Assembly (NCBI GenBank): GCA_945876035.1 | Contig: CAMCMU010000009.1 | Coordinates: 1 to 64,000, forward strand | DNA length: 64,000 bases | Origin: Schlesneria paludicola DSM 18645 | GTDB lineage: Bacteria; Planctomycetota; Planctomycetia; Planctomycetales; Planctomycetaceae | Reading direction: 5' to 3' | In this document: in pieces, positions 9,911-53,589 of the stretch | How positions within the stretch are numbered: position 1 is the stretch's first letter | How the letters are laid out: each line of letters begins with the position of its first letter | Notes under the pieces: model-generated | The model's database searches: none | Told to the model about the DNA's origin: nothing | The model's input: the letters and a program-made list of their open reading frames with translations, nothing else | Made by a program: the position numbers and the translations under genes

Positions 9911-11227
9911 GTGCGAATTGCTTATTTGGACTGCGCTTCGGGTATCAGTGGTGACATGACTGTCGCGGCACTCATTGATGCCGGGGTTGATGCCAACGCG
10001 ATTCGAGTTGGCATCGAATCGCTCGGCCTATCCGGCGTCACATTGCACATTGAGGAGGTCATGCGGGGCGGTTTCCGAGCGAAATCCATTCGCGTCGAGC
10101 ATCCGGAACAGCATTCCCATCGGCATCTCGCCGACATTCAGAAAATCATCAACCGCTCGGAAGGATTAACAGACGATCAGCGAGATTTGGCCCTGCGCAT
10201 TTTCGCCGCGGTCGCGGAAGCGGAAGCCAGCGTCCACGGTTCGACGATCGATCAGGTGCACTTTCACGAAGTCGGTGCGATCGATTCCATTGTGGATATC
10301 ACCGCAGCGGCGATCGGCTTCACTCTGCTCGGCGTCGATGAAATTGTGTGCAGTCCCATTCCAACCGGGCGCGGACAGGTGCGCATTGCTCACGGAGTCT
10401 GCTCAATCCCCACCCCAGGTACGGCCGAACTGTTAAAAGGTGTGCCGCTGGTCGATGTTCCGGTGGATGCCGAACTGACAACACCGACCGGCGCGGCCAT
10501 CGTCAAGATGGTCGTCGATCGGTTTGCTGACAGCCTTCCCGAGATGACGATTGACACCATCGGATACGGTGCCGGAACCAAAGACTTCGAGGACCGTGCC
10601 AACGTCGTCCGGCTTATCATCGGCGAGTCTCGCGCTGTCGCAACGATCACTGACAGCGTCATGTTGCTCGAAACGAATCTCGACAATTGCACCGGCGAAG
10701 TGATCGGCTACACAAAACGACAACTGTTGGCAGGGGGAGCGTTGGATGTGTATTCCACGTCCATACAAATGAAAAAAGACCGACCGGGCGTAATCCTCAG
10801 CGTGATTTGCCAGTCCGATGACGTGGCCAAGATGGAAACGATCCTCTTCAACGAAACCACGACACTGGGAATTCGCCGGCATCCTATTCAACGTTCGATT
10901 CGCCAGCGGACAACGTATAATGTCGAAACGGATTTCGGTCCAATCAAGGGAAAGCTGGCATGGCGCCCTGAAGAACCTGTGATCTTCACCCCCGAATACG
11001 AAGACTGTGTGGAGATCGCCAAGGCGCACGACCTGCCGCTGCGTGACGTCTTCCTCGCTGCGCAGGTTGCGTTCTTGATGGAGGAACACGAGGAAGACGA
11101 CGGTCACGACCATGATGGGGCTCACGACCATGATGGGGCTCACGACCATGATTGCGGCCACGATCATGATGGGGCTCACGATCATGATGGGGCTCACGAT
11201 CATGATCACAGGCACGATCATGATTAA
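9911..11227 (+). CDS. larC: Nickel-pincer cofactor (NPN) biosynthesis protein LarC with His-rich tail
   Basis: LarC inserts nickel into pyridinium-3,5-bisthiocarboxylic acid mononucleotide in a CTP-dependent step, making the cofactor of lactate racemase-type enzymes. The 438-residue product starts RIAYLDCASGISGDMTVAAL and carries the family motifs QVHFHEVGAIDSIVDITAAA and ETNLDNCTGEVIGYTKRQLL. LarC1 and LarC2 halves are in one frame, unlike the frameshifted Lactobacillus gene. The start is GTG 9911 with AAGGA at 9899-9903. The last about 45 residues are HDHD units encoded by an 18-bp tandem repeat, probably a nickel store or loading arm. larB and larE are not adjacent. Confidence 0.92.
   Translation: MRIAYLDCASGISGDMTVAALIDAGVDANAIRVGIESLGLSGVTLHIEEVMRGGFRAKSIRVEHPEQHSHRHLADIQKIINRSEGLTDDQRDLALRIFAAVAEAEASVHGSTIDQVHFHEVGAIDSIVDITAAAIGFTLLGVDEIVCSPIPTGRGQVRIAHGVCSIPTPGTAELLKGVPLVDVPVDAELTTPTGAAIVKMVVDRFADSLPEMTIDTIGYGAGTKDFEDRANVVRLIIGESRAVATITDSVMLLETNLDNCTGEVIGYTKRQLLAGGALDVYSTSIQMKKDRPGVILSVICQSDDVAKMETILFNETTTLGIRRHPIQRSIRQRTTYNVETDFGPIKGKLAWRPEEPVIFTPEYEDCVEIAKAHDLPLRDVFLAAQVAFLMEEHEEDDGHDHDGAHDHDGAHDHDCGHDHDGAHDHDGAHDHDHRHDHD
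11101..11224 (+). repeat. 18-bp in-frame tandem repeat encoding (GAHDHD)n tail of LarC
   Basis: Seven units based on GGGGCTCACGAYCATGAT encode GHDHD, GAHDHD (twice), CGHDHD, GAHDHD (twice) and HRHDHD. The third-position change from GAC to GAT between left and right copies shows that units were duplicated within each half. Copy number may vary between strains without breaking the frame. Confidence 0.9.
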
Positions 11228-30692: not shown

Positions 30693-30873
30693 TTTCTACT
30701 CCAAATGAAAACAGGGGAATTCAAAGTTCCCGACAACTCCTGTGGCGGCGCGGTAAACCGAGCGGATCTGGTCCAGTTCTCGGATTGACTTCGTGCTCAT
30801 CCGCCGCATTCTTTCTGACAGATTCAGTGTCGGAACATGCTAACCACGATCAATCCTGCTTCCATGCGCAAGA

Positions 30874-30927
30874 GAGAAAGAGAAAGAGAAAGAGAAAGAG
30901 AAAGAGAAAGAGAAAGAGAAAGAGAAA
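30874..30927. repeat. Hexanucleotide microsatellite (GAGAAA)9
   Basis: Nine perfect consecutive GAGAAA units, followed by extra A residues. It is purine-only on the plus strand, so it could form triplex structures and is likely to vary in length. Confidence 0.95.
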
Positions 30928-48204: not shown

Positions 48205-49497
48205 TCACGGACGAGGATCGCCTGCTGTCTTCGCACCTGTTTCTCCCGACGTGAATTGATTGACGATTTTCGTCAATCGAGTACGACACGTTACGGGCCC
48301 CATTCGCATTGGCAAAGCGATGGAGTCGATTTTGACGGACTTGGTCCCGACCATCGCGCTCAACAATCTGCGGATAGGCGTATGTGACTCGCTGGGGTAG
48401 ACCAATGAAATCCGGTCGGCGTTGAATGCCATGGCGTAGGCACACATTTGAAATCGATCACTGCGACTCTCGTTCCCAAATTCATTCTTGTACTTTCCAT
48501 CCAGCACCCATCTCTTCCCGGCTTGTTCCACGATCGCATCAGCGGTCATCCAACGTTTTTCATCGCTGTGTCCCGGCGCGTCGTCCCAACGTCGCGTGCG
48601 AGCTTCTCGCGGCAACGGATTCCATCCCGTCTCACATGCGGACTCGCTGAGCATGCGCCGTAACCCGTCCTCCCAAATCGCAGGCATTGAGAGGGTGAAT
48701 GCCTGACCTCCCATGATCGATTCAGGGTCGAGGACCGCACCAATCAGGATCAGCCGAGCCAATTGCAGTGCCTCCCGATAGCCGGGCGGTTCCGCCGATT
48801 GTGCCGCGACGGCAGCAGTGAGTGGATCGCTGATGTCGCGTCGGACCGAAGCCCACTGTTCGCGAAGCATCGCCATTTTGCGACGATCCTCCGTCCTTCC
48901 ATCCGAGAGCAAACTCGGCAGGCGATCAAGGGCCAAAGCCAAAACGATGTTGAACGGCGTATCGAACGTTCGTTGCCTTTGGAGTTGCGGTACACGCGGC
49001 AGCCGATACAGCTCTTGCCCGAGCTTCGATATCAAAATCCGTCCACGAATCGCCGAGTCACAGGCCGAGACGACAACGTAGCCTTTTCGCAAATGCTGCC
49101 GGGTGACGTGATCCATCGCATGTAGAAACAACCGTGCGATGCAGAGATGCCAGTCATCTTGATCCGATTTGACGGCGGCAGCACCGGACTCTGGCAACCA
49201 ATGCGAAAGCCGAGGGAATTTGCCCAGATACGCGAGCCAGTCCAAGAGCACAATGTTGGGAATCTTTGACCGAATCACCAATCGGCGACCGCTCGGAAGA
49301 ATGACCAAACCGACGTGCGTTGTCCCACGAACGGCAACTTCGTTGCCGACGATGTTCAGATCGATGAGACGACGTTCTGCAAGAGTACCGAGCATCACGA
49401 TATCGTCGCCGACGATGTCACGTGACCCGATCCAAGGTTCGTTGAAGCCGCTCCCCGCTTCAAAGCATGTAATTGGATCACGCCTGTGGTTCGCCAT
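48205..49497 (-). CDS. mcrC: McrC-type nuclease subunit of a modification-dependent restriction system
   Basis: McrC partners the McrB GTPase and supplies the nuclease that cuts modified DNA. The 430-residue product has an N-terminal beta-rich part (THVGLVILPSGRRLVIRSKI), a helical middle (FLHAMDHVTRQHLRKGYVVV), and the PD-(D/E)xK nuclease core: D320 of WMTADAIVEQ and D333-G-K-Y-K of RWVLDGKYKNEF, the McrC signature. Length fits the family (Escherichia coli McrC is about 350). Its start overlaps the end of mcrB by 20 bp, so the two are translated together. Confidence 0.92.
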   Translation of the reverse strand: MANHRRDPITCFEAGSGFNEPWIGSRDIVGDDIVMLGTLAERRLIDLNIVGNEVAVRGTTHVGLVILPSGRRLVIRSKIPNIVLLDWLAYLGKFPRLSHWLPESGAAAVKSDQDDWHLCIARLFLHAMDHVTRQHLRKGYVVVSACDSAIRGRILISKLGQELYRLPRVPQLQRQRTFDTPFNIVLALALDRLPSLLSDGRTEDRRKMAMLREQWASVRRDISDPLTAAVAAQSAEPPGYREALQLARLILIGAVLDPESIMGGQAFTLSMPAIWEDGLRRMLSESACETGWNPLPREARTRRWDDAPGHSDEKRWMTADAIVEQAGKRWVLDGKYKNEFGNESRSDRFQMCAYAMAFNADRISLVYPSESHTPIRRLLSAMVGTKSVKIDSIALPMRMGPVTCRTRLTKIVNQFTSGETGAKTAGDPRP

Positions 49498-51871
49498 CGT
49501 TCAGCACTCCAAATGTGACTGAGGCTGGCTGTTCAACACACTCCAGCAGCAAGTCCTCGACCTGTCGAAGCAAGTCCGAATCAGCCTGCCCGAATTGCAT
49601 CGTGAGCAACTCACGCACATACGGCACCACGCTGAAACGGACAATTTGCCGCAAGCGACGTTCGCTCAGCGGAATGTCGAGCATTGGTGAAGTCACGTCG
49701 TCTTCGCCGCGCCGCTGGAGCATAAAGAGGGCATGCCCAATGTGTTGTTCGGGAGGGATGCCGTGCTCTTCCAGAGCTTCGTTGACTCGCGCAAGTGACT
49801 CCGCCTTGAAACCGGGCGGATTGTTGCCCGGCCGTTTCAACCAGCGGGCAAGCGTGTCTGGCTGCGAATGGAGATTCAGCCAGAGGAACCGGCGTCGGAG
49901 TGCCAAGTCCAAACGACCAATCGAGCGGTCGGCGCTGTTCATGGTGCCGATGATGAAGAGGTTGCTGGGAAAGACGAAGTTTCGGCCGGATAACAATCTC
50001 ACGGTTGTGCCACGGTATTCGAGCAACTGCAACAGTTCACCGAGTACCGCAGCCGTATCGCAGCGGTTGATCTCGTCTAACACCAACACGTGTCGCGACC
50101 CTGGCGCATAGTCCTTCAATCGCTGGACCCATTCAAGAAAGAACCCGAGGCGCGGTTCAAAATTCAGGACGCCGTCTTTTGAATTCGGCTTCAGTCCCTC
50201 GAAGAAGTCCTCGTAGGTCCAGTTCGCGTGCATGTAGAGCACGTCCGACGTTCCTTGGGGGCGACTGCCTCGTTGACGGACAAAGTATCGAGCGAATTGA
50301 CGCGCAACGAACGTCTTCGAGGTTCCGGGCGGTCCGACGAGGATTGCCTGTTGTCGCGCCAACAGCGCGTCCTCAAGGTCGTCCAGAAATAGTTCGGGCA
50401 GCGCGGTGAGTTCGGCAAGCTCCTTGGTTGTTTCAGGGACATCTTCATCAACCTCGCTGGCAGCGTCGTCGATCAATTGAGCGTTCGCAGGCTTTGGTGC
50501 GGGAGCATTCCAGCGTCCCGTCATTGCCGCCTCGAAGAACGGCCACAACCAAGTGAAGTATCCACCGACCTCGTCCACGAAAGTGGCCCCATGGTCGACC
50601 AACGTCGAGAGTGGGAACTCACGAACAATCGCGATGTCCGTGAGCGGTCCATCAAGTCCGAACCGAGCTGTCGCGGGCTGAGCTAGCGATTCTGCAAACT
50701 CCGAGGATGAGAGTTGAACGGTGTCCGTCCCAGAATAGAGGCGAATCAGCGTGTCAGCGGGAGCCGAACGGGTGTAATCCGCGACCACAGATCGATTGGC
50801 ATCGACCACCGCGACCAGCCGTTCAAGATACTCTTCGCAATAATTCCCCATCGCGAGGCCGTACCGCCAAACTCGTTCGCGCCCGAGAAATCGCACATAC
50901 AGTTGGACCGACTTCGTCTTGCTCCCCGTCGCCGGGTCGTAGAACGCATACCAATAGTGATCGTGGTAACCGCCTTTGCCGTAGTCGTTCTTCTTTAGGA
51001 TCGAGAGGTGTCGCTTACCGCCTGCGACGGCCGGACTCAACCTTTGGATGTACTTGGCCCGAAGCTGGTCAATAATCTGCTGACTCGGATCTCGAAGGAC
51101 CGCTTTGTAACGCCGCTTGTTTTGCTCATGCCAAGCACCGTCTGAGTCGTGGTCGGGCAAGTCGAGAATGAATTGGACGGTGTCCTGTGCGTACGTCGCC
51201 GCGATCGCCTCGTCCGAGTCGTCGTCATCGAGTGCCGTCTCCGGCGCTTCACTGTCAACGTCTTGCGACACTGCATCATTCGGAAGCTCGGAAGCAAGTC
51301 GTTCTTCCTTGAGGTTGTCATCGGTCTTAATCGCTTCCAGCAGTTTCTCACGCTCAAAGGGACTCAACTCAACGCGCGAGTAGTAGGGAGCGAAACTTGG
51401 TGCCTCTGGCGAGTTCTTGAGTTGATGATCCTCCGGGGAAATAAGAATGGTCCTTCGGCCGGTAACAGCGTCGCGTGGCACGTCAGCCACGGAAGCGAAG
51501 GCGATGTCCTCTGGAACCGCCCACGCATGAAAAACGTCTTGCTCCAAATCCCAATGAAGGAAAAGGTATGCGACCGGACTTTTGTCGGCGAGCGAATGCA
51601 ATTCCTCCGAAACCGAAGGAAATAGGTTCGTCCAGAATTGATCGGCGACTCGTGAGTTACGCAGCCCGATGAATCCACCATTCCATTTGAACAGCGAATG
51701 ACGCACATGCTCCGGTTGATTGCCGGGCTGCCCGAGCCTCGCGCAAGCCAACGTCGTCATACAACGCCCGGCATTTCTTCGCCGCCGATCGTCAATCGTG
51801 ATGGCCGGAGTATCCGACGATGGCTGAGCGAGACTATGCAGGATGCTGGCAGCGAAATGGGCATGGTCCAT
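49478..51871 (-). CDS. mcrB: McrB-type AAA+ GTPase with enlarged N-terminal sensor region
   Basis: The 797-residue product ends in an McrB AAA+ domain: Walker A GPPGTSKT (513-520), MHANWTYEDFFEGLKP, Walker B HVLVLDEINR (594-603), MNSADRS (644-650, the McrB-specific loop) and ALRRRF (657-662). The about 490 residues before it exceed the roughly 160-residue methyl-DNA-binding domain of Escherichia coli McrB. I see two modules: residues about 60-185 (LFLHWDLEQDVFHAWAVPED) and 250-450 (HDHYWYAFYDPATGSKTKSV, YVRFLGRERVWRYGLAMG), joined by an acidic linker (ALDDDDSDEA). These probably recognise modified DNA, but the modification is unknown. The ATG at 51871 is used. Confidence 0.9.
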   Translation of the reverse strand: MDHAHFAASILHSLAQPSSDTPAITIDDRRRRNAGRCMTTLACARLGQPGNQPEHVRHSLFKWNGGFIGLRNSRVADQFWTNLFPSVSEELHSLADKSPVAYLFLHWDLEQDVFHAWAVPEDIAFASVADVPRDAVTGRRTILISPEDHQLKNSPEAPSFAPYYSRVELSPFEREKLLEAIKTDDNLKEERLASELPNDAVSQDVDSEAPETALDDDDSDEAIAATYAQDTVQFILDLPDHDSDGAWHEQNKRRYKAVLRDPSQQIIDQLRAKYIQRLSPAVAGGKRHLSILKKNDYGKGGYHDHYWYAFYDPATGSKTKSVQLYVRFLGRERVWRYGLAMGNYCEEYLERLVAVVDANRSVVADYTRSAPADTLIRLYSGTDTVQLSSSEFAESLAQPATARFGLDGPLTDIAIVREFPLSTLVDHGATFVDEVGGYFTWLWPFFEAAMTGRWNAPAPKPANAQLIDDAASEVDEDVPETTKELAELTALPELFLDDLEDALLARQQAILVGPPGTSKTFVARQFARYFVRQRGSRPQGTSDVLYMHANWTYEDFFEGLKPNSKDGVLNFEPRLGFFLEWVQRLKDYAPGSRHVLVLDEINRCDTAAVLGELLQLLEYRGTTVRLLSGRNFVFPSNLFIIGTMNSADRSIGRLDLALRRRFLWLNLHSQPDTLARWLKRPGNNPPGFKAESLARVNEALEEHGIPPEQHIGHALFMLQRRGEDDVTSPMLDIPLSERRLRQIVRFSVVPYVRELLTMQFGQADSDLLRQVEDLLLECVEQPASVTFGVLNDGEPQA

Positions 51872-52173
51872 GAGTGAGACTGATCCCCGTCTGTTTGGTG
51901 CCGCGTAATTTCATTACGACACGGCTACGTCGCATCTGAAGTAAGAGTGATTTCCAGAGCCAATATAGCCAAGAGCGGCAAAGTGCCGTGAGTAAAACAA
52001 TTTAAAGGCCAGGGTCGATTATGCCGATTATAGCAACTGCCTCGACTGTTACGGCAGGTTTGGCAATTCCACACGGTTATCTCGGTCCCTAAGTGTATGA
52101 AGTCAAAACTTGTAACTCGATAACATTTTTAAGGTGACAGGGTGACAGGGTGACAGGGTGACAGGGTGACAGG
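51872..52173. other. Divergent region between mcrB and the porin gene
   Basis: About 260 bp of A/T-richer sequence with no gene, followed by an octamer repeat array that ends in the porin start codon. It should hold the mcrB promoter and the porin promoter. Confidence 0.5.
52133..52172. repeat. Five tandem GGTGACAG octamers directly before the porin start
   Basis: Five perfect copies at 52133-52172, then a diverged sixth (GGTGGCAA, 52173-52180) that contains the GTG start of the porin gene. The array includes an in-frame TGA, so translation cannot start further upstream in this frame. An 8-bp unit changes the spacing of leader elements when copies are gained or lost. Confidence 0.95.
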
Positions 52174-53589
52174 GTGGCAACAATTTTTTGCAGAATTGCA
52201 TTATTGGTCCTCTGTAGCGGTTGGTTCGTGTCGTACGAGTCCGCAGGCTCAGACTTGCTGTTCGAAGCCTTGCCTGTGCTGATCGATGCGGCGGATACTG
52301 AAGAGGAACTGCGCCCCGCGGACATCGCCGGCGAACTCCAACGTCTGCAGAAGCAGATCGATGATTTGCAGTCGGCAGCCAAGTCTTCGAAATCTACTGA
52401 TGAGCCAGTGAAAGGAAAGAAACCGACACTTGTGCTCTCCGGCCAAGTGCAAGTTGACCAAATCTTTTTCGGGCAAGACGACTTGAGTCGCGAGAGCTTG
52501 GGGGACCTGCAGGATGGTGCCGCTTTCCGACGACTCCGAATCATAGCGCGGGGTAAGGTATGGCAGCAATTAGAATACGCCTTGGGCGTTGATTTCGAAC
52601 TCGCCGATAGGCCGACTCCTCTCGACAACTACATCGAGGCCCACGACCTGCCGCGGTTGCAGAACGTCCGCATTGGACACTTCTTCGAGCCCTTCTCGCT
52701 CGAGCGAGTCACACAGAACCGCAACAACACGTTCATGGAACGGTCACTCGTCGACACATTCGCGCCCGCCCGCAACATGGGCATCATGACCTATGGCAAC
52801 ACAGAGAGTGAGCTTGCGACGTGGCAAATCGGCACTTTCCGCACCAACAGCGACAACGTCGGTAACGACTCATTCGATAGCGGACAAGCACTGACCATGC
52901 GGGGCACCGCACTGCCGTATTGGGACGAGCCGAGCGATGGACGTTACTACATGCACCTCGGTGTCGCTTACAGCTATCGCGGAAGCGCGGGAAACAACCT
53001 CCGGTTCCGCAATACACCCGAAATCCGAAAGCAGCAGCCTTTCGGTAGCCCTACCTACGACAGCAGCGTCCCGCAATTTGCCCCGATCTTCGTCGATACG
53101 GGCAACATCTCTGCATCCAGCTTCCAGCTTTTCGATCCGGAGTTTGCCCTGATTTTCGGGCCGCTCTCATTGCAGTCGGAATATGCCTTCGCGCTCGTCG
53201 ATCAGATCGACAAGCCTAATCTGTTTTTCAACGCCTACATGGCCCAAGTGAGCTATTTCCTCACCGGCGAACATCGGCCTTACGACCGCAAGGCTGGCAT
53301 TCATAAACGGATGGAGCCGTTCGCCGACTTCCTTCGAGTACCGAATGAATCCGGTGGAGTTCGGACCGGTCCTGGGGCTTGGGAGATCGCCGCCCGGTTT
53401 TCAAAAATCATCTTGAACGACAAAAACATCGAGGGCAACAACCTGACCGACTTCACGCTTGGCCTGAACTGGTACTTAAACCGATACACCCGGGCAAAGT
53501 TCAACTACATTCACGCCTTTCTCGAGGACACACGCAACGGCAATAGCAACACCGACATCTATGGCGTCCGTGTCGACTACGAATTTTAG
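52174..53589 (+). CDS. Phosphate-selective porin O/P-like outer membrane protein
   Basis: The 471-residue product starts at GTG 52174 with a signal sequence (ATIFCRIALLVLCSGWFVSY). A short coiled-coil follows (ELQRLQKQIDDLQSAAKSS), as in planctomycete OprP-like porins, then a beta-barrel domain of the OprO/OprP family: LVLSGQVQVDQIFFGQ, FRRLRIIARGKVWQQLEYAL, NVRIGHFFEPFSLERVTQNR, NTFMERSL. The barrel ends with the aromatic strand DIYGVRVDYEF. It probably allows anion (phosphate or pyrophosphate) diffusion across the outer membrane. The start codon lies within an octamer repeat array, and no ordinary ribosome-binding site is present, unless the GGTGACAGG repeats serve as one. Confidence 0.88.
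   Translation: MATIFCRIALLVLCSGWFVSYESAGSDLLFEALPVLIDAADTEEELRPADIAGELQRLQKQIDDLQSAAKSSKSTDEPVKGKKPTLVLSGQVQVDQIFFGQDDLSRESLGDLQDGAAFRRLRIIARGKVWQQLEYALGVDFELADRPTPLDNYIEAHDLPRLQNVRIGHFFEPFSLERVTQNRNNTFMERSLVDTFAPARNMGIMTYGNTESELATWQIGTFRTNSDNVGNDSFDSGQALTMRGTALPYWDEPSDGRYYMHLGVAYSYRGSAGNNLRFRNTPEIRKQQPFGSPTYDSSVPQFAPIFVDTGNISASSFQLFDPEFALIFGPLSLQSEYAFALVDQIDKPNLFFNAYMAQVSYFLTGEHRPYDRKAGIHKRMEPFADFLRVPNESGGVRTGPGAWEIAARFSKIILNDKNIEGNNLTDFTLGLNWYLNRYTRAKFNYIHAFLEDTRNGNSNTDIYGVRVDYEF

What the first reader, a model, noticed from the sequence alone, without database searches (positions are those of the whole stretch)
48205..51871. McrBC system with two extra sensor modules on McrB
The AAA+ GTPase and McrC nuclease are canonical, but McrB carries about 490 residues before the AAA+ domain, in two modules with an acidic linker, unlike the short methyl-DNA-binding domain of Escherichia coli. 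The protein may read a different modification (or two features at once). It is the clearest candidate for a new defence specificity in the window.
Basis: partly seen in the sequence, partly recalled or inferred. Interest (0 to 1): 0.65.

Follow-up and report, generated by a model that had tools for sequence, protein, structure and literature searches.

The report
McrBC restriction system, two DNA-reading modules
A planctomycete carries a standard two-gene bacterial DNA-cutting defence (McrBC) whose targeting half has two front modules: one looks like a distant relative of the known E. coli methyl-DNA reader and the other like a dead restriction nuclease reused for DNA binding, so it may recognise a different DNA mark, though that is untested.

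Summary
The genes and layout are real: McrB (49478-51871, minus, 797 aa) and McrC (48205-49497, minus) overlap by 20 bp; AAA+ GTPase (MNSADRS) and PD-(D/E)XK McrC are canonical; about 490 residues precede the AAA+ domain in two modules split by an acidic linker. Neither module is wholly new. Module 2 (about 226-455) is a DUF2461 domain. Its predicted fold matches DUF1054 proteins (Z 14), then E. coli McrB DNA-binding-domain entries (Z 5.0-5.8, not clearly above background). A profile comparison with DUF3578/MrcB_N supports distant homology, so module 2 probably fills the McrB-N role rather than being 'extra'. Module 1 (1-200) matches no Pfam family; its confident model resembles PD-(D/E)XK enzymes, best NhoI/Eco15I (Z 8.2), but lacks conserved catalytic acids: probably a dead-nuclease DNA reader. 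DUF2461-McrB also occurs in other planctomycetes and a cyanobacterium with different first modules, so the distal module is swapped. Multi-module McrBs are common. Best reading: a mobile GTP-dependent restriction system with two DNA readers of unknown target. Modification dependence was not testable here. New variant of a known kind.

The parts
49478..51871 (-). mcrB ORF, 797 aa: two N-terminal modules plus AAA+ GTPase
   Evidence: Pfam; PDB McrB hits; orthologues
51272..51871 (-). Module 1, residues 1-200: PD-(D/E)XK-like fold without conserved catalytic acids; probable DNA reader
   Evidence: no Pfam match; AF2 pLDDT 86.3, pTM 0.85; VIA best NhoI/Eco15I Z 8.2/7.9 and mostly PD-(D/E)XK rows below; invariant W63 G66 R71 N72 W80 Y102 W107 W117, no invariant acid in the core strands
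51197..51271 (-). acidic linker, residues 201-225
   Evidence: sequence; variable in length and sequence among orthologues
50507..51196 (-). Module 2, residues 226-455: DUF2461 domain, probably distantly homologous to McrB-N (DUF3578/MrcB_N)
   Evidence: PF09365 24.6 bits, cut-off 22.8; AF2 pLDDT 79, pTM 0.82; DUF1054 Z 14.0/13.6, McrB-N Z 5.0-5.8; profile-profile score 32.8 against MrcB_N
50951..50992 (-). conserved loop KNDYGKGGYHDHYW (residues 294-307) aligned with the G-x-G...PW loop of McrB-N that carries Y41
   Evidence: part of the loop has pLDDT under 50
49667..50404 (-). AAA+ GTPase domain, residues about 490-735
   Evidence: AAA_5 1.3e-17; 6hz4 5e-29
50312..50335 (-). Walker A GPPGTSKT (513-520)
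   Evidence: identical in all 7 orthologues
49922..49942 (-). McrB signature MNSADRS (644-650), MNxxDRS type
48205..49497 (-). mcrC ORF, 430 aa; starts 20 bp inside the end of mcrB
   Evidence: PF10117 2.6e-24
48487..48549 (-). McrC PD-(D/E)XK motif region TADAIVEQ...VLDGKYK (residues 317-337)
   Evidence: pattern found in 5 of the 7 McrCs tested

Best explanation
A complete McrBC-type restriction system. Shown here by sequence: McrB has an AAA+ GTPase motor of the MNxxDRS type and McrC is an apparently active PD-(D/E)XK nuclease. Inferred from the McrBC family: McrB forms hexamers, McrC joins and stimulates GTP hydrolysis, the complex translocates on DNA and McrC cuts. Inferred from domain evidence: target choice is made by two DNA-binding modules of McrB. 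The module next to the motor is a DUF2461 domain that plays the part of McrB-N, probably reading a base with the help of the loop KNDYGKGG...W. The distal module is a PD-(D/E)XK fold that has lost its catalytic residues and is used to bind DNA, adding sequence or modification context; relatives replace it with unrelated modules. The target is probably modified DNA, but its chemistry is unknown and need not be 5mC. The gene pair is an accessory, mobile cassette.
For: Motor and nuclease. Module 2: Pfam DUF2461 over its cut-off on its own, and in orthologues L018, L020 and the McrBs of another planctomycete family; a profile of fused modules finds 28 mostly stand-alone DUF2461 frames (some from overlapping loci), 23 of them at E under 1e-6, best 5.3e-15; the AF2 fold matches DUF1054 and then McrB-N entries; profile-profile similarity to MrcB_N over 126 columns, E 4.6e-4, score 32.8 against null mean 12.2, maximum 21.4. 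Module 1: confident model, list dominated by PD-(D/E)XK nucleases with NhoI/Eco15I on top, no conserved acids in the core strands but conserved W/R/N/Y. Swapping: DUF2461 sits directly before AAA+ with other N-terminal parts in planctomycetes L022-L031 and Leptolyngbya. Mobility: about 90% identical copies in different surroundings (L016, L017), one relative beside a serine recombinase (L032), one beside a phage integrase (L021); 3 of the 15 same-genus genomes have it.
Against: No activity data. McrB-N Z 5.8 is less than 1 above unrelated rows (ExsC 5.0, YbjN 4.9), so the link rests on the profile comparison and the shared position before AAA+. Column shuffling is a lenient null, and adding stand-alone DUF2461 proteins to the profile lowered the score to 15.5 (null maximum 14.7). 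Module 2 has no PF12102 match. The E. coli 5mC contact Y64 (PMC3874153) aligns near a K/R/A in module 2, though the alignment there is uncertain. Z 8.2 for module 1 is near the level reached by common arrangements. The genome itself encodes one C5 and one N4/N6 methyltransferase, so a reader of any 5mC could harm the host.
Confidence: 0.6

Rival explanations
1. Only module 1 reads DNA; the DUF2461 module is a structural or GTP-recognition spacer next to the motor, kept constant while the reader is swapped.
For: DUF2461 directly precedes AAA+ with at least three different N-terminal parts. Elements just upstream of AAA+ take part in guanine recognition in known McrBs (PMC7680126).
Against: Module 2 is probably distantly homologous to a known DNA-binding domain and has many invariant polar and aromatic residues.
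Confidence: 0.2
2. A LlaJI-like system: a sequence-specific restriction enzyme acting on unmodified DNA, with host methyltransferases for protection.
For: McrBC relatives of this kind exist (LlaJI; PMC12707154). A restriction-enzyme-like module 1 could read sequence. The host has one C5 and one N4/N6 methyltransferase.
Against: No methyltransferase recognised among the genes next to the pair in the window; both host methyltransferases lie on other contigs; the neighbours of the closest copies include no constant methyltransferase.
Confidence: 0.12
3. Module 1 is itself an active nuclease, giving a two-nuclease McrBC.
For: Its predicted fold is nuclease-like.
Against: No acidic residue is invariant in the core strands of eight homologues; the invariant residues of the third strand are R71 and N72.
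Confidence: 0.04
4. An RNA-targeting, CoCoNuT-like system.
For: Large N-terminal extension on McrB.
Against: CoCoNuT GTPases carry NxD (PMC11090510); this one has NxxD (MNSADRS). No Pfam-detected HEPN or Hsp70-like domain in the pair; the McrC nuclease motif is present.
Confidence: 0.04

Closest known systems
E. coli K-12 McrBC (DUF3578/ADAM-AAA+ plus McrC)
   Same: AAA+ motor with MNxxDRS, McrC PF10117 nuclease, B-C gene order, DNA-binding-type domain directly before AAA+
   Different: The domain before AAA+ is DUF2461, only distantly similar to DUF3578; an added N-terminal pseudo-nuclease-like module; Walker A GPPGTSKT
Multi-module plasmid McrBs (Roseomonas MrcB_N in the middle; Rhizobium Mrr_N plus a second module)
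   Same: Two or more N-terminal modules before AAA+
   Different: Other module families
Thermococcus gammatolerans McrB (YTH) and EVE-McrB
   Same: Same motor with an exchanged reader (PMC7680126, PMC12707154)
   Different: Reader folds of the PUA superfamily; neither module here has a Pfam EVE, SRA or YTH match
BisI-family enzymes NhoI and Eco15I
   Same: Closest solved folds to module 1 (Z 8.2 and 7.9)
   Different: They are active PD-QXK nucleases that sense 5mC without flipping (PMC11347163); module 1 lacks the catalytic residues and shows 11-14% identity
Stand-alone DUF2461 and DUF1054 proteins
   Same: Module 2 belongs to DUF2461 and shares the DUF1054 fold
   Different: Those are separate proteins of unknown function

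Membership tests
McrBC (type IV restriction) machinery | AAA+ GTPase with Walker A/B and MNxxDRS | tested here: met
McrBC (type IV restriction) machinery | adjacent McrC with PF10117 and PD-(D/E)XK motif | tested here: met
   86.2 bits against cut-off 23.9; TADAIV...VLDGKYK
McrBC (type IV restriction) machinery | restriction dependent on DNA modification | not testable with these tools
   needs phage or in vitro cleavage assays
DUF2461 (PF09365) | profile match over the curated cut-off | tested here: met
   module 2 alone 24.6 bits against 22.8; 20.7 in the whole protein, under the cut-off; relatives up to 63.1
DUF3578 / MrcB_N (PF12102), the E. coli McrB DNA-binding domain | Pfam profile match | tested here: not met
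   no PF12102 match for module 2 at E up to 10
DUF3578 / MrcB_N (PF12102), the E. coli McrB DNA-binding domain | distant homology and same fold | tested here: inconclusive
   profile comparison supportive; McrB-N Z 5.0-5.8 but nearly tied with unrelated rows
DUF3578 / MrcB_N (PF12102), the E. coli McrB DNA-binding domain | 5mC-contacting Y64/L68 pocket | tested here: inconclusive
   an L/F aligns near L68 and K/R/A near Y64, but the alignment is ambiguous there
PD-(D/E)XK superfamily (module 1) | core fold | tested here: inconclusive
   best Z 8.2, most listed rows are PD-(D/E)XK nucleases, but Z about 8 can be a common arrangement; no sequence match
PD-(D/E)XK superfamily (module 1) | catalytic D...(D/E)XK | tested here: not met
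   no invariant acid in the core strands of 8 homologues
SRA / EVE / YTH / PUA readers | Pfam or fold match | tested here: inconclusive
   no Pfam match in either module; not listed by VIA, which does not exclude them
CoCoNuT | NxD GTPase motif | tested here: not met
   MNSADRS is NxxD

The most novel reading that the evidence does not exclude
DUF2461, a widespread family of unknown function, is a base-reading DNA-binding fold homologous to the McrB-N 5mC reader; here it works in tandem with a dead PD-(D/E)XK module to require two features at once (a modified base plus a sequence or a second mark).
Probability: 0.25. Interest if true: 0.65.

Novelty: new variant of a known kind. Interest (0 to 1): 0.45.

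Why it matters
It proposes a testable role for DUF2461, links it to the base-flipping reader of E. coli McrB, and shows a McrB lineage in which a constant motor-proximal module is combined with exchangeable distal readers, including a probable dead nuclease reused as a reader. Such systems are sources of new modified-DNA binding tools. No paper found in the searched library connects DUF2461 with McrB; subscription papers and supplements were not searched, so prior notice cannot be ruled out.

Tried and rejected
PDB sequence searches with module profiles found nothing meaningful. McrB-N as a single sequence against the module profiles was not significant; the comparison became so only with a 12-sequence MrcB_N profile and an 18-sequence fused-DUF2461 profile. 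Including stand-alone DUF2461 proteins in the profile lowered the score to 15.5 (null maximum 14.7), which weakens the case. MrcB_N was sought in 246 planctomycete genomes and nothing rang, the controls included, so that search says nothing about absence. The viral fold library gave no match under E 0.001 for module 1. The EVE-like look of Leptolyngbya McrB residues 200-385 was not confirmed by Pfam or PDB. SRA, EVE, YTH and B3 folds did not appear in the fold lists for either module. An empty site could not be defined: the closest relative by TsaD (G009, 84%) keeps the S41 protease-TsaD order without McrBC, but its downstream genes differ.

Full report
OBSERVATION. The two genes are present and intact. 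McrB is 49478..51871 on the minus strand (797 aa); McrC is 48205..49497 on the minus strand (430 aa) and starts 20 bp inside the end of mcrB. McrB matches AAA_5 (1.3e-17) and the E. coli McrB AAA+ structures (5e-29 over residues 491-702), with Walker A GPPGTSKT at 513 and MNSADRS at 644, identical in all seven orthologues compared. McrC matches PF10117 (86.2 bits, cut-off 23.9).

MODULE 1 (residues 1-200). No Pfam match and no solved relative by sequence. Foldseek gave only weak matches, with DpnI first (E 0.022). VIA-align put NhoI (Z 8.2, 124 residues, 3.1 A) and the Eco15I N-terminal domain (Z 7.9) first, followed mostly by PD-(D/E)XK enzymes: RecU, Hjc, SfiI, PvuII, NaeI, DpnI, EcoRV. Z near 8 can be a common arrangement, so the evidence is the consistency of the list. 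In eight homologues no acidic residue is invariant in the core strands; the invariant residues there are W63, G66, R71, N72, W80, Y102, W107, W117. Catalysis by module 1 is therefore unlikely; DNA binding is an inference. NhoI and Eco15I are active nucleases that sense 5mC in the duplex (PMC11347163); this does not show that module 1 reads 5mC.

MODULE 2 (residues 226-455). Scanned alone it passes the DUF2461 cut-off (24.6 against 22.8 bits). A profile of McrB-fused modules finds 28 mostly stand-alone planctomycete DUF2461 frames at reporting level, best 5.3e-15. The AF2 model (pLDDT 79, pTM 0.82) matches two DUF1054 structures (Z 14.0 and 13.6), and the next eleven rows are all E. coli McrB DNA-binding-domain entries (Z 5.8 to 5.0). 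Those Z values are nearly tied with unrelated rows, so the link was tested by profile comparison. A single McrB-N sequence was not significant (scores 18-19 against shuffle maxima of 16-20). With 12 MrcB_N sequences (plasmids, E. coli, a viral contig) against 18 fused DUF2461 modules, hhalign gave score 32.8, E 4.6e-4 over 126 columns; 200 column shuffles gave mean 12.2, maximum 21.4; four unrelated real profiles gave 15-18. The same register recurs: KNDYGKGGYHDHYWYAFYD in the window with SLGKGNWATVPWIALMD in a Roseomonas DUF3578 McrB. Adding stand-alone DUF2461 proteins weakened the score. I judge distant homology probable, not proven. The residue of E. coli McrB that touches the methyl group, Y64 (PMC3874153), seems not conserved, so 5mC specificity should not be assumed.

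FAMILY AND SURROUNDINGS. The full architecture occurs in L016 and L017 (about 90% identical), L018, and genomes G114, G014, G012, plus IMG/VR contig L032 next to a serine recombinase (the recombinase is read from its ORF sequence, not from a profile scan). Neighbours of relatives include RhuM, YhcG, Bro-N, HsdM and a phage integrase; in the window the neighbours are TsaD and a porin. Three of 15 same-genus genomes, the own one included, have the module pair. This fits a mobile accessory cassette. DUF2461 also sits directly before AAA+ in ten McrBs of another planctomycete family with an unrelated region of about 330 residues or more in front, and in a McrB on a Leptolyngbya plasmid with yet another front part and an adjacent McrC. 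Module 1 was found only in the full architecture: 2 of 392 phylum genomes, none in plasmids.

HOW IT PROBABLY WORKS. Shown: motor and nuclease motifs, domain assignments at the levels above, conservation, differing surroundings. Inferred: GTP-driven assembly and translocation with McrC cleavage as in McrBC; base reading by module 2; added context reading by module 1. The host genome has one C5 and one N4/N6 methyltransferase, so the target is probably context-restricted or a different mark. My confidence that this is a working McrBC-type restriction system is about 0.85; that both modules read DNA, about 0.6.

NOVELTY. Multi-module McrBs are common and exchange of McrB readers is well known (PMC7680126, PMC12707154). 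The combination here, DUF2461 plus a dead PD-(D/E)XK-like module, was not found described in the searched library, which lacks many journals; no supplements were read. I rate it a new variant of a known kind.

Noticed in passing
window 52133-52176: Perfect 8-bp tandem repeat (GGTGACAG, 5.5 copies) between mcrB and the porin gene, overlapping the porin's first possible start codon.
   Followed up: no
L025:4624-6096, L026:4844-6397, L024:8255-9754: DUF2461-McrB loci of the second planctomycete family carry an extra ORF of about 490-540 aa next to mcrB, in L025 and L026 between mcrB and mcrC; the L025 and L024 copies have no Pfam match.
   Followed up: partly
L032:2-5986: An IMG/VR contig holds a close McrBC relative beside a large serine-recombinase-like ORF, suggesting that the system rides on an integrating element.
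   Followed up: partly
L103 (G226:C135:58720-59109): A 921-aa frame with a DUF2461 domain at its C-terminal end and no McrB AAA+ motifs: another fusion of unknown role.
   Followed up: no
G000:C49:8336-9457 and G000:C10:114140-114826: The host genome encodes one C5 and one N4/N6 DNA methyltransferase, which limits what this McrBC may attack.
   Followed up: partly
window 30873-30927; 11100-11224: Perfect hexamer array AGAGAA (9 copies) and an 18/54-bp repeat array.
   Followed up: no
L017: An 83-92% identical McrBC copy is binned in a MAG named Candidatus Kuenenia stuttgartiensis: recent transfer or mis-binning.
   Followed up: no
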